64,000 nt of DNA from Burkholderia savannae. GTDB taxonomy: Bacteria; Pseudomonadota; Gammaproteobacteria; Burkholderiales; Burkholderiaceae. Within the stretch, counting starts at the first letter, position 1, and every line of letters begins with the position of its first letter. Below the pieces are notes generated by a model. It made no database searches. It was not told the DNA's origin and saw nothing but the letters and a program-made list of their open reading frames with translations. Where the stretch lies: NCBI RefSeq assembly GCF_001524445.2, contig NZ_CP013418.1:1054001-1118000 (forward strand), in the 5' to 3' direction. Position numbers and translations under genes: made by a program. Shown piece after piece: positions 27,062 through 37,896 of the stretch.

Positions 27062-28020
27062 CAGGCTGTTGAAATTGGATACGGTGTAAACGAGCGCTGT
27101 GGGCGGTGCGTTAGAGATATCGTGTTCATGATCTCGAAACGTTCTTTACCGAAGTCATGAGTTTGGCCGACAAGCAAGGGCTGCTCTCCAGAGAACACTT
27201 CTCGGTGGATGGCACGCTGATCCAGGCATGGGCCAGCCACAAGAGCTTCCGGCGCAAGGACGGTTCGGACGATCCGCCGGCCGGCGGTGGCCGCAATGTC
27301 GGCACCGACTGGAAGGGCAAGCGGCGCAGCAACGACACGCATGAATCGAGCACCGATCCGGATGCGCGCCTGTTCCGCAAGGGTAGGCAAAGCGGAGTCA
27401 TCCTTTGTTATCAGGGGCACATCCTGATGAAGAACCGCTCGGGCTTAGTGGTCAGCGCCGTGGTCAGCCACGCCGACGGTTTCGGCGAACGCGCAAGTGC
27501 ATTGCGCCTGCTCGACTGCGTGCCGGGTCGTCACGCCAAGACGCTCGGCGCCGACAAGGCTTACGACATGCGCGACTGCCGAGCGCGTAAGGTGACGCCA
27601 CACGTCGCGCGCAACGACGCGCATCAAGGCGGCAGCGCGATCGACGGCCGCACCTCTCGGCACGTCGGTTATGGCATTAGCCAAGTGATTCGCAAGCGCA
27701 TCGAAGAGCACTTCGGCTGGGGCAAGAGCGTCGACAGGATTCGACAGACCGCGTATCGCGGCATCAAGCGAGTCGACCAGCACTTCAAGCAGACGATGCT
27801 GGCGAGCAACCTGACTCGAATGGCTCGAATACTGGCAGCGGTGCCCAAGGGGCAATGCGATGAGCCGCCCAAGCGCAGCCGTTGCGCGGCAACGCGCCGG
27901 CCGGCCCGCTCGCAAGCGGGGCATCCGGCACGATCCATCGGCAACTCAGCGGCCAATCGCATACGAAACCCTTTTAAACAGTGCCCCGATCGTCAAAACA
28001 AGGCGCTTTTCAACAGCCTG
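27062..28020 (+). mobile_element. IS5/IS1182-type element, left copy, N-terminally truncated transposase
   Basis: 959 bp bounded by inverted ends CAGGCTGTTGAAA / TTTCAACAGCCTG. The outer flank is CTAT and the inner flank CTAG. It is about 97-98% alike at protein level to the copy at 36940-37896, which faces the other way across the pyrrolnitrin operon. Both copies lack the same N-terminal transposase coding part, so both descend from one deleted element. Confidence 0.88.
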
Positions 28021-28125
28021 CTAGAGCCGCCGACTCACGCATCGCCGCTCACTCGCGGCGGTGCGGTCGAGCGGTCGTCTCGGCGACGCGGTCGACCCAG
28101 CCCCGGTAGAACGCGCGGTACTTGA
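27157..28125 (+). pseudogene. IS5/IS1182-type transposase, lacking N-terminal domain
   Basis: DDE transposase C-terminal portion: LLSREHFSVDGTLIQAWASH (first Asp), LGADKAYDMRDCRARKV (second Asp), and KRIEEHFGWGKSVDRIRQT (Glu). Family members carry about 100-130 more N-terminal residues (DUF772); here the frame upstream of the ATG meets a stop at 27112 after RYRVHDLETFFTEV. The frame also reads past the IS end to 28125, into the 3' end of prnD on the other strand. Unlikely to be active alone. Confidence 0.8.
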
Positions 28126-29161
28126 GCACGAGCTTGTCGTACCTGCTGTACGCGCCGCCGCCGTCCGGCTTCATCCCGTTCCAGATTTTGACGTCGTACC
28201 CCGCGGCCTGTCTGGTCTGCAACCCGAACAGCACGAAGTCGGTCGCGCGGCGCAGGACGCCGCCCACCTTCTTGATCGAGATGAGCATGTGCATGACGTT
28301 TTTGCCGTCGCTCACCGGCGTCACGCACTGGAGCAGCTTGTATTTGACGTCTCCGTCCAGCGCGACGGTCATGACGCACCCGCCGGGGTAGCCGTCGAAG
28401 TGCAAGTTCATCTGCGACATGTTCAGGCCGAACGCGCGCGACAGCATGCCGAGGGGCCCGAAGTAGCGGTTCACGGTGAAGTCAATCCCGGCACCGAACC
28501 ACGCGCCCGCCCGGGCCAGCGACTCGGCCTCCGGCCACTGGCGCCAATCGTCGAAGATCTTGAGCTCGAAGGCCGAGATCGGGAGCGCGTGCACGGGGGT
28601 CGCGTGCTGCGCGTCGTAAAAGTTCTCGACGATCCGCAAGACCGCAGTCGTCGTCTCGAACGCGATGTGCAGGTGCATGAAGTCGCCGTTGTCGACGTCG
28701 GCCGCGGCGATTTCAGGCAGCGGGTGCAGCGGCTGCGGGGAGCCGTACCAAACCCACACATAGCCGTATCGCTCAGCGGTGACCAACGTCGGCTGGCGCG
28801 CGCCGCGCGGGACGGGCTCCAGCTGGCGCACCGCCTGGCTGTGGCCGGGGATGTGAACGCACTGGCCGTGCTCGTCGTACCGCCAGTGGTGAAACGGGCA
28901 CTGGATGCACCCGTCCTTGACCCGCCCGTCGGCCAGGTTCGCGCCGAGGTGCGAGCAGTGGCGGTCCATCACCACGGCCCGCCCGGTCGCGCCGCGCCAC
29001 GCCACGCACGGACGGCCGAAGAGCGTCAACTCCGTCGGCTTGTCCTTGAGGTCGTCCGAGCGCATCGCGACGTACCAGCTCGCGGCCACGCGCGTGGTCG
29101 CGTCGTACGCCCCCGGGGCATGTTCCTTGGTGCCCGCTTGATCCAATTGAACGTCGTTCAT
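28049..29161 (-). CDS. prnD: Aminopyrrolnitrin oxygenase PrnD (Rieske N-oxygenase)
   Basis: 370 residues, close to the known 363. The Rieske [2Fe-2S] site is C-x-H...C-x2-H in RHCSHLGANLADGR and GCIQCPFHHWRY (residues about 69-91). The mononuclear iron site has E-x2-D-x2-H-x4-H in VENFYDAQHATPVH (about 180-193). PrnD oxidises the amino group of aminopyrrolnitrin to the nitro group of pyrrolnitrin, the last step; it needs an external flavin reductase, and no reductase gene is in this cluster. Last gene of prnABCD, 24 bases after prnC. Confidence 0.95.
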   Translation of the reverse strand: MNDVQLDQAGTKEHAPGAYDATTRVAASWYVAMRSDDLKDKPTELTLFGRPCVAWRGATGRAVVMDRHCSHLGANLADGRVKDGCIQCPFHHWRYDEHGQCVHIPGHSQAVRQLEPVPRGARQPTLVTAERYGYVWVWYGSPQPLHPLPEIAAADVDNGDFMHLHIAFETTTAVLRIVENFYDAQHATPVHALPISAFELKIFDDWRQWPEAESLARAGAWFGAGIDFTVNRYFGPLGMLSRAFGLNMSQMNLHFDGYPGGCVMTVALDGDVKYKLLQCVTPVSDGKNVMHMLISIKKVGGVLRRATDFVLFGLQTRQAAGYDVKIWNGMKPDGGGAYSRYDKLVLKYRAFYRGWVDRVAETTARPHRRE

Positions 29162-29185
29162 CGTTTTCGTGTCGTCGTCGGCCGA

Positions 29186-36072: not shown

Positions 36073-36929
36073 AGGGTGTTATGAACTTTGCCGCCGATAA
36101 GACAAGATGTCGGGATGAAAACCCGCAAGCCTTATCCGAGCGATGTCAGCGACGAAGAATGGTCGTTCGTTGTGCCGTATCTGGCGCTGGTGCGAGAAGA
36201 CAGCGAACAACGCCGCCACGAACTTCGCGAGGTCTTCAATGCGCTGCGCTGGCTGATCAGAAGCGGCGCGCCGTGGCGCATGTTGCCTAATGACCTGCCC
36301 CCGTGGGAAGCGGTCTATCAACAGACGCAGCGCTGGATGCGAGCGGACTGTTTCGAGGTGAACGTGCATGATCTGCGAGAACCGTTGCGCGTGTGCGATG
36401 GACGCAAAGCGCAACCCAGTGCCACGATCCTGGACAGCCGTACATTGCAATCGACACCGGAATCCGGCTCGCGCACCGGCTACGACCGCGCGAAGCGCCT
36501 CAAGAGTTCGAAAGTGCATCTGGCGGTCGATACTCCGGATCAGTTGCTGGCACTGCATGTGACACCGGCCAATGAGCAGGATCGCACACAGGTCGAGCAA
36601 TTGGCCCATGCGGTACAAGAATTGACCGGCCAGAGCGTGGCGCTTGCGTACGTGGATCAGGGCTATACCGGCGAAGCGGCTCGTCAGGCAGCACAAAGCC
36701 ACGGCATTGAGTTGGAGGTGCTCAAGCACACCGAGGCCAAGCGCGGTTTCGTGTTGCTGCCCAGACGCTGGGTGGTCGAGCGCAGCTTCTCATGGGCTGC
36801 GCGCTTTCGACGCCTCGCGCGCGACGGTAAACGCTTGCCTCACACGCTGGCCGGATTCCATTTCCTCGCCTTCACCTGTCTAATGCTGCCCAAAATCATC
36901 GCCTTCATTCATCTAGGTTCATAACAGGC
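36073..36929 (+). mobile_element. IS5-family element, complete
   Basis: About 857 bp. Ends are imperfect inverted repeats: GAGGGTGTTATGAAC and GTTCATAACAGGC. It carries one intact transposase. A deleted derivative of the same element is at 34493-34827. It abuts the right IS5/IS1182-type copy directly. Confidence 0.88.
36115..36924 (+). CDS. IS5-family transposase
   Basis: 269 residues from the ATG at 36115. N-terminal DUF4096-type region (YPSDVSDEEWSFVVPYLAL, LREVFNALRWLIRSGAPWRM, LPPWEAVYQQTQRWM) followed by a DDE core: D in ATILDSRTLQ, D in LAYVDQGYTGEAA, E in RRWVVERSFSWAARFRRLAR with the Y(2)R(3)E-like spacing. Complete, and may also act on the deleted derivative nearby. Confidence 0.93.
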   Translation: MKTRKPYPSDVSDEEWSFVVPYLALVREDSEQRRHELREVFNALRWLIRSGAPWRMLPNDLPPWEAVYQQTQRWMRADCFEVNVHDLREPLRVCDGRKAQPSATILDSRTLQSTPESGSRTGYDRAKRLKSSKVHLAVDTPDQLLALHVTPANEQDRTQVEQLAHAVQELTGQSVALAYVDQGYTGEAARQAAQSHGIELEVLKHTEAKRGFVLLPRRWVVERSFSWAARFRRLARDGKRLPHTLAGFHFLAFTCLMLPKIIAFIHLGS

Positions 36930-37801
36930 CCTTCTATGAGGGCGTTGAAAAGCGCCTTGTTTTGACGATCGGGGCACTGTTTAAAAGGGTTTCGTATGCG
37001 ATTGGCCGCTGAGTTGCCGATGGATCGTGCCGGACGCCCCGCTTGCGAGCGGGCCGGCCGGCGCGTTGCCGCGCAACGGCTGCGCTTGGGCGGCTCATCG
37101 CATTGCCCCTTGGGCACCGCTGCCAGTATTCGAGTCATTCGAGTCAGGTTGCTCGCCAGCATCGTCAGCTTGAAGTGCTGGTCGACTCGCGTGATGCCGC
37201 GATACGCGGTCTGTCGAATCCTGTCGACGCTCTTGCCCCAGCCGAAGTGCTCTTCGATGCGCTTGCGAATCACTTGGCTAATGCCATAGCCGACGTGCCG
37301 AGAGGTGCGGCCGTCGATCGCGCTGCCGCCTTGATGCGCGTCGTTGCGCGCGACGTGTGGCGTCACCTTACGCGCTCGGCAGTCGCGCATGTCGTAAGCC
37401 TTGTCGGCGCCGAGCGTCTTGGCGTGACGACCCGGCACGCAGTCGAGCAGGCGCAATGCACTTACGCGTTCGCCGAAACCGTCGGCGTGGCTGGCCACGG
37501 CGCTGACCACTAAGCCCGAGCGGTTCTTCATCAGGATGTGCCCCTGATAACAAAGGATGACTCCGCTTTGCCTACCCTTGCGGAACAGGCGCGCATCCGG
37601 ATCGGTGCTCGATTCATGCGTGTCGTTGCTGCGCCGCTTGCCCTTCCAGTCGGTGCCGACATTGCGGCCACCGCCGGCCGGCGGATCGTCCGAACCGTCC
37701 TTGCGCCGGAAGCTCTTGTGGCTGGCCCATGCCTGGATCAGCGTGCCATCCACCGAGAAGTGTTCTCTGGAGAGCAGCCCTTGCTTGTCGGCCAAACTCA
37801 T
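36905..37801 (-). pseudogene. IS5/IS1182-type transposase, right copy, lacking N-terminal domain
   Basis: 298 residues, near-identical to the left copy: differences include VVSH/VASH, GERAS/GERVS, GIKRV/GITRV and QAGHP/QAGRP. The same DDE landmarks are present and the same N-terminal part is missing. The frame reads out through a damaged IS end into the neighbouring IS5. Confidence 0.8.
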
Positions 37802-37896
37802 GACTTCGGTAAAGAACGTTTCGAGATCATGAACACGATATCTCTAACGCACCGCCCACAGCGCTCGTTTACACCGTATCCAATTTCAACAGCCTG
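36940..37896 (-). mobile_element. IS5/IS1182-type element, right copy (inverted)
   Basis: Outer end TTTCAACAGCCTG at 37896 is perfect; the inner end is damaged (GGGCGTTGAAAAGCGCC in place of CAGGCTGTTGAAAAGCGCC). Opposite orientation to the copy at 27062. Identity between copies extends about six bases beyond the outer ends (CTCTAT / ATAGAG). Confidence 0.88.

What the first reader, a model, noticed from the sequence alone, without database searches (positions are those of the whole stretch)
27062..37896. Pyrrolnitrin operon carried in an IS-bracketed block
Complete prnABCD lies between two inverted, nearly identical IS5/IS1182-type copies, with a LysE exporter, two further IS5-derived elements, a MITE and truncated genes. 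This layout, with an AT-rich stretch next to the operon, points to horizontal gain of antifungal biosynthesis in this lineage. The copies lack their N-terminal transposase part, so the block may no longer move by itself but could flip by homologous recombination.
Basis: partly seen in the sequence, partly recalled or inferred. Interest (0 to 1): 0.85.

Follow-up and report, generated by a model that had tools for sequence, protein, structure and literature searches.

The report
Mobile pyrrolnitrin operon with travelling exporter
A Burkholderia genome carries the four genes for the antifungal pyrrolnitrin in a block framed by broken jumping genes, very probably gained from another bacterium, and comparison of relatives suggests that small exporter genes have come to lie beside this operon several separate times.

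Summary
In detail: intact prnABCD lies between two inverted, near-identical, internally deleted IS5-family copies (27062-28020, 36938-37896), with a LysE gene, two further IS5-family elements and a MITE. Horizontal gain is well supported: of the two closest relatives by rpoB, G017 has no prn, G021 has it elsewhere, and both lack the block at this site. Mobility of prn, with transposases around it, was already published (Costa 2009, known to me only through citing papers).

New here: (1) the outer ISs are not the recurrent partner; a second IS5-family element (36073-36932; 'IS427-type', name recalled) adjoins prn in 11 of 24 Burkholderia prn loci, at the same place upstream of prnA in 7. (2) The order prn-IS427-LysE-IS427 recurs on an 880-kb B. 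pyrrocinia plasmid. (3) A LysE gene lies beside prn in 16 of 24 loci, from four separate LysE clades: probably repeated recruitment of an exporter to a cluster said to have none. Its function is untested, and prnABCD alone gives antifungal activity elsewhere. Whether the outer ISs moved the block as a composite transposon cannot be decided, because their CTAG targets are palindromic.

The parts
26112..26750 (+). Left native neighbour: LuxR-type response regulator
   Evidence: Response_reg + GerE; syntenic in G017 and G021
27062..28020 (+). Left outer IS5-family copy, internally deleted; flanks CTAT (27058-27061) and CTAG (28021-28024)
28049..29161 (-). prnD (Rieske oxygenase)
29186..30934 (-). 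prnC (halogenase)
30945..32030 (-). prnB
   Evidence: PF08933, E 1.9e-107
32030..33646 (-). prnA (tryptophan halogenase)
   Evidence: PF04820, E 1.4e-174
33647..34493 (.). Upstream region of prnA, AT-rich at its far end; belongs to the operon
   Evidence: aligns at least in part in 17 of 23 other Burkholderia prn loci
34494..34829 (+). IS427-type element, internally deleted
   Evidence: 32 nt of left end joined to the last 300 nt of the full copy
34832..34980 (.). MITE with terminal repeats like those of the outer IS, CTAG on both sides
   Evidence: uninterrupted site in G034, G061, G022 and pBPJTT
34981..35580 (-). LysE-family transporter gene, 199 aa
   Evidence: PF01810, 43.7 vs 25.6 bits
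36073..36932 (+). Full-length IS427-type element with one open transposase frame
   Evidence: NF033580 matched over 1-258 of 258, 188 vs 110 bits; frame
36938..37896 (-). Right outer IS5-family copy, same internal deletion; flanks CTAT (36934-36937) and ATAG (37897-37900)
38000..38794 (-). Right native neighbour: HpcH/HpaI aldolase gene, first of a catabolic group reaching to about 43.6 kb
   Evidence: remnant of the group in G021

Best explanation
A horizontally gained pyrrolnitrin cassette. Its inner unit is prnABCD plus a LysE exporter gene, separated and bounded by copies of one IS427-type IS5-family element; the same order sits on a Burkholderia megaplasmid, so such a replicon is a likely source (inferred). 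In this lineage the unit lies between a LuxR regulator gene and a catabolic gene group and is bracketed by two copies of a second IS5-family element that descend from one deleted copy (shown). The outer copies lack the start of the transposase and no full copy was found in the genome, so they could move only with a transposase supplied in trans (inferred); their inverted identity would allow the interior to flip by homologous recombination (inferred). One apparently whole IS427-type transposase gene remains inside. The operon looks intact and should make pyrrolnitrin (inferred). The LysE association is more likely functional than accidental, because LysE genes of four separate clades lie beside prn in different species.
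For: Operon and ISs. Only two copies of the outer IS plus a 163-bp remnant, and only two copies of the IS427-type element plus a 68% relative, in the genome. rpoB groups the genome with G017 and G021; G017 has no prn, G021 has it 0.6 Mb from its copy of the left flank; both lack the block. prn 97.1% vs rpoB 94.5% identity to G022. Same IS427 junction in 7 of 24 loci. Same inner order on plasmid pBPJTT. LysE beside prn in 16 of 24 loci and 3 of 3 Burkholderia prn plasmids, four clades, next most frequent neighbour 5 of 24.
Against: A window+G021 prn clade is not rejected (p 0.112). Distance matrices of prn and rpoB correlate no less in the IS427 clade (Spearman 0.38) than in the other (0.28). 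With a length cut of 75 nt the IS427-type element is at prn in 5 genomes and elsewhere in 4. No strain with a clean empty site was available. prnABCD alone gave antifungal activity in Paraburkholderia, so LysE is not strictly needed.
Confidence: 0.7

Rival explanations
1. Composite transposon in the strict sense: the two deleted outer IS copies, with transposase supplied in trans, carried everything between them into this site in one step.
For: Outer flanks CTCTAT and ATAGAG are each one base from the halves of CTCTAGAG; the outer IS has CTAG on both sides in two G052 copies; neither copy is found elsewhere in the genome.
Against: The left copy taken alone has flanks CGGCTCTAT and CTAGAGCCG, which fits a single insertion in a palindrome; the two target copies differ (CTAT, ATAG).
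Confidence: 0.35
2. Stepwise: the prn-LysE unit came in by its IS427-type elements or by homologous recombination, and the outer IS copies settled at its two edges later.
For: IS427-type sequence adjoins prn in 11 of 24 loci, the outer IS in 2 of 24 (window and G052, at different places); the outer IS prefers CTAG and the IS427 ends supply CTAG.
Against: Two late insertions of the same deleted copy at both edges and nowhere else in the genome is a coincidence that the composite model avoids.
Confidence: 0.45
3. Vertical inheritance: the ancestor of the window's group had prn; G017 lost it and G021 moved it.
For: AU test does not reject a window+G021 prn clade (p 0.112).
Against: prn is closer to G022 (97.1%) than to G021 (96.4%), the reverse of rpoB (94.5%, 96.1%); different positions in the two genomes; ISs confined to the block.
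Confidence: 0.08
4. LysE is only a passenger brought beside prn by IS427-type elements, without a role in pyrrolnitrin.
For: In the window LysE lies between two IS427 copies; prnABCD alone suffices for activity elsewhere (PMC13184526 passage); LysE families are common in this genus (5 to 18 matches per genome).
Against: The LysE genes of G036, G037, G039, G031, G018, G011, G023, G005 and G053 lie beside prn with no IS427 trace detected; no other family recurs comparably; dN/dS 0.08-0.46 between linked copies.
Confidence: 0.4

Closest known systems
prn loci with transposase genes around them in B. pseudomallei (Costa et al. 2009, Environ Microbiol 11:159-175; not held, known through passages in PMC4392301 and PMC9579380)
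   Same: prnABCD near transposase genes, read there as whole-operon mobility
   Different: Whether the same ISs, LysE or MITE are described there I could not check
prn block on B. pyrrocinia plasmid pBPJTT (NZ_CP091309.1, L210)
   Same: prn DNA 96.2%, IS427 remnant, LysE 94% (aa) and IS427 part in the same order and orientation
   Different: No match to the outer IS and no MITE; on an 880-kb plasmid
prn locus of G052 (L124)
   Same: A 1.35-kb copy of the outer IS lies near prnD and a full-length decayed IS427-type element beside the prnA-upstream region
   Different: One outer IS only, inserted at another CTAG; no LysE
prn on conjugative plasmid of Azotobacter salinestris (NZ_CP045303.1, L209)
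   Same: prnABCD at 95.5% identity on a mobile replicon
   Different: Cation:proton antiporter and flavin reductase beside it, no LysE, no close match to either IS

Membership tests
prnABCD pyrrolnitrin operon | Four genes prnA-prnB-prnC-prnD in this order on one strand, open frames with the expected domains | tested here: met
prnABCD pyrrolnitrin operon | Production of pyrrolnitrin | not testable with these tools
   needs LC-MS
Composite transposon | Two copies of one IS at the ends of a block | tested here: met
Composite transposon | At least one copy with a whole transposase gene | tested here: not met
   both copies lack the N-terminal part; no full copy in the genome
Composite transposon | Matching target duplication at the outer ends | tested here: inconclusive
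   CTAT and ATAG; palindromic CTAG target
Composite transposon | Clean empty site in a close relative | tested here: inconclusive
   G017 and G021 lack the block but also much of the DNA to its right
IS5 family (outer copies) | Curated NCBIfam IS5 model above cut-off | tested here: met
   NF033581 156 vs 140 bits
IS1182 family (outer copies) | Curated NCBIfam IS1182 model above cut-off | tested here: not met
   67-70 vs 270 bits
IS5 family (inner element) | Curated NCBIfam IS5 model above cut-off over its whole length | tested here: met
   NF033580 188 vs 110 bits, 1-258 of 258; the subgroup name IS427 is recalled and not tested
LysE translocator family | Pfam PF01810 above gathering score over most of the protein | tested here: met
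   43.7 vs 25.6 bits, residues 17-194 of 199
LysE translocator family | Transport of a known substrate | not testable with these tools
   no NCBIfam equivalog passes its cut-off

The most novel reading that the evidence does not exclude
Burkholderia prn operons have a fifth functional partner: a LysE-type exporter of pyrrolnitrin or of a chlorinated tryptophan intermediate, recruited separately several times and spread together with prn by an IS427-type element; the window block is one such travelling unit.
Probability: 0.45. Interest if true: 0.62.

Novelty: new variant of a known kind. Interest (0 to 1): 0.5.

Why it matters
How pyrrolnitrin leaves the cell is open: a review says that the cluster has no dedicated transporter gene (PMC9579380, passage). 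LysE genes of four clades beside prn give a concrete, testable candidate. The shared IS427-type junction upstream of prnA gives a DNA mark for following the spread of an antifungal trait among Burkholderia and their plasmids.

Tried and rejected
IS1182 as family of the outer copies: rejected by curated cut-offs. AT-rich stretch as sign of foreign DNA: set aside, it is the operon's own upstream region. Genes at 37.9-43.6 kb as part of the gained island: suspected, set aside because a fragment of the GarD-like gene survives at the same place in G021. Pairing of target duplications: tried, inconclusive. Circular permutation of a prn-LysE circle (order in G022 against the window): it fits, but so does shuffling by IS427 ends; not claimed. 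'IS427 private to prn loci': an earlier wording of mine, dropped, because at 75 nt or more it is at prn in 5 genomes and elsewhere in 4; the odds of the novel reading went from 0.5 to 0.45 for that reason.

Literature: 'pyrrolnitrin' with 'LysE' (100 papers, 20 listed, most of them matching the verb 'lyse'), 'LysE family' (3 papers), prnABCD with 'translocator' (none), exporter/efflux (listing). Of the three papers I saw passages of one (PMC5472815), where LysE is in a general list of pumps. Costa 2009 is not held, so I cannot say that the LysE link is unpublished.
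Full report
WHAT IS THERE. The window is G000:C2:1054001-1118000 of an unnamed 7.43-Mb genome. prnD, prnC, prnB and prnA lie on the minus strand, 28049-33646, all open and recognised by Pfam. They are framed by two inverted IS copies, 27062-28020 and 36938-37896, with 7 substitutions in the body and a scrambled inner end of the right copy. Both lack the same segment of about 0.38 kb that a copy in G052 keeps, so both descend from one deleted element. By curated cut-offs the family is IS5, not IS1182. This genome holds only these two copies and a 163-bp remnant at 76%; G052 holds six longer copies, and G039, G022, G017 and G064 three or four each.

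THE INNER ELEMENTS. A second IS5-family element is present full length at 36073-36932, with one open transposase frame over the whole curated model, and as an internally deleted copy at 34494-34829. I call it IS427-type; that name is recalled and comes from no call. Between them lie a MITE (34832-34980) with terminal repeats like those of the outer IS and CTAG on both sides, and a LysE gene (34981-35580). The uninterrupted sequence CTAGCGGTTGAG is seen in G034, G061 and G022 and on plasmid pBPJTT. The MITE has two further copies at 94% and 91% and two weak ones in the genome; of the two better ones, one has CTAG before it and one CTGG.

HORIZONTAL GAIN. prn is in 24 of 65 genus genomes. By rpoB (29 of 30 chosen genomes gave it) this genome groups with G017 and G021 at 100 SH-aLRT. 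G017 has no prn; G021 has it 0.6 Mb from its copy of the left flank. In both, synteny with the window stops near 26.76 kb and resumes at 43.6 kb (G017) or 44.4 kb (G021). A piece matching window 41395-41602 (82%) lies between the two in G021, so the catabolic genes to the right of the block were probably there in the common ancestor and were lost in G021, and the block 27.06-37.90 kb is what is extra in the window; in G017 only a 60-bp match from inside the lost stretch was seen. prn is 97.1% identical to G022 against 94.5% for rpoB, and 96.4% against 96.1% to G021. In the prn tree the window groups with seven loci from outside its rpoB group (98 SH-aLRT) and G021 with G022 (94). Against this, an AU test does not reject the window plus G021 as a prn clade (p 0.112). 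Path lengths: in 8 species of a prn clade without detected IS427, the median prn/rpoB ratio is 3.77 (28 pairs); in 13 species of the clade that holds the IS427-bearing loci it is 0.98 (78 pairs). The two sets were named after seeing the tree, two of the 13 have no IS427 trace, and the two distance matrices correlate no less in the second set (Spearman 0.38, 153 of 5000 permutations as high) than in the first (0.28, 429 of 5000). So prn in the second clade is young against rpoB, but the test does not separate a vertical from a horizontal clade.

WHICH ELEMENT TRAVELS WITH prn. Of 24 Burkholderia prn loci (window included), 11 have IS427-type sequence adjoining the operon region: the window, G021, G022, G034, G032, G052, G010, G049, G062, G061 and G025; for G061 and G025 this rests on reading short ends by eye. 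In 7 (window, G022, G034, G032, G052, G010, G049) the left end of the element begins at the same place, window 34493/34494 within two bases, in the same orientation. In the genus search, where only part of the candidates per genome was scored, close copies at prn were listed in 8 genomes and away from prn (83% or more, 75 nt or more) in 4: G021, G006, G018, G008; with the same length cut 5 genomes have it at prn. The order prn - IS427 - LysE - IS427 recurs on the 880-kb B. pyrrocinia plasmid pBPJTT, the first IS427 piece there being a short remnant read by eye. Of 72,556 plasmid records 4 hold most of prn: three Burkholderia plasmids of 0.88-1.26 Mb and a plasmid of Azotobacter salinestris typed as conjugative, at 95.5% identity. 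Large plasmids thus carry prn today; that one was the source here is inference.

COMPOSITE TRANSPOSON OR NOT. The outer IS has CTAG on both sides in the two G052 copies that I read. The block's outer flanks are CTCTAT and ATAGAG, each one base from the halves of CTCTAGAG, which fits one composite insertion. But the left copy alone has flanks CGGCTCTAT and CTAGAGCCG, which fits a single insertion in a palindrome. Because the target is its own reverse complement, the duplications cannot be paired, and the question stays open.

THE LysE GENE. A LysE-family gene lies beside prn in 16 of 24 Burkholderia loci and in 3 of 3 Burkholderia prn plasmids, whose LysE genes are the three best of 149 plasmid records matched. 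It is in 0 of 11 loci of other genera (four of these, L008, L013, L015 and L026, have under 2.2 kb of DNA on one side) and not in the fetched stretch of the Azotobacter plasmid. In a census of neighbours within 5 kb, LysE is found at 15 of 24 loci (the 16th, in G010, by tblastn), the next family at 5 of 24 (LysR-like by eye). To the window's LysE the linked ones are 93-95% (5 loci), 58-59% (3), 54% (1) and 48-51% (6) identical, while prn DNA is 91-97% identical to the window's. In a tree of 76 proteins the 16 linked genes fall in four places among 13 unlinked ones (47 further rows have unknown context); one clade is rejected (p-AU 8e-63) and at least 4 changes of state are needed, which could be gains or losses of the link. 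G010's linked gene groups with an unlinked one of G062. A homologue at E 1e-48 or better, a cut chosen after seeing the list, is in 19 of 24 prn+ and 5 of 41 prn- genomes (Fisher p 8e-8, not corrected for relatedness). Linked copies show dN/dS of 0.08-0.46 in the three groups compared. I read this as repeated recruitment of a functional partner. A review states that the cluster has no dedicated transporter and that multidrug transporters were noted nearby by Costa et al. (passage in PMC9579380). Against a strict need: prnABCD of B. lata gave antifungal activity in two Paraburkholderia (passage in PMC13184526). Substrate and function are untested.

WHAT IS KNOWN. Transposase genes around prn in B. 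pseudomallei were reported by Costa et al. 2009, as cited in PMC4392301 (passages); the paper is not held. B. oklahomensis EO147 has prnABCD (passage in PMC4905989). The block is thus a new case of a known phenomenon. The recurrent IS427-type junction and the LysE recruitment I found stated nowhere in the listings or in the passages read; most subscription papers are not in that library.

Noticed in passing
28021-28048; downstream of prnD in L006, L013, L015, L115, L121, L130, L209: A short stub (MRESAAL...FRQALANLASGVTVITAYG) follows prnD in many loci, annotated as a flavin reductase fragment on the Azotobacter plasmid; in the window the left IS cuts it after a few codons.
   Followed up: partly
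L209 (NZ_CP045303.1), 4709-12553: prnABCD with antiporter and a longer flavin reductase gene on a plasmid typed as conjugative in Azotobacter.
   Followed up: partly
L116 (G022), 5395-12788 as oriented: prn and LysE lie between two inverted, identically shortened IS427 derivatives of about 110 bp, with a near-identical 17-bp sequence outside each: a possible MITE-bounded composite unit.
   Followed up: partly
L019 (B. metallica), prn region: The prnA part is replaced by a 67% similar stretch in inverted orientation.
   Followed up: no
L016 (B. arboris) and L212 (B. arboris plasmid): A second, partial and inverted copy of the prnD 3' end (287-295 bp, 93-95%) lies about 5 kb upstream of prnA.
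   Followed up: no
26634-26925: The 3' end of the LuxR gene is duplicated in tandem (145 nt, 80%) just left of the block.
   Followed up: no
40156-40299: Array of 8-bp tandem units (CGMTTTRC) between the MFS gene and the GarD-like gene.
   Followed up: no
G000:C1:689735-689895 and G000:C2:469566-469722: Two further copies (94%, 91%) of the MITE elsewhere in the genome.
   Followed up: no
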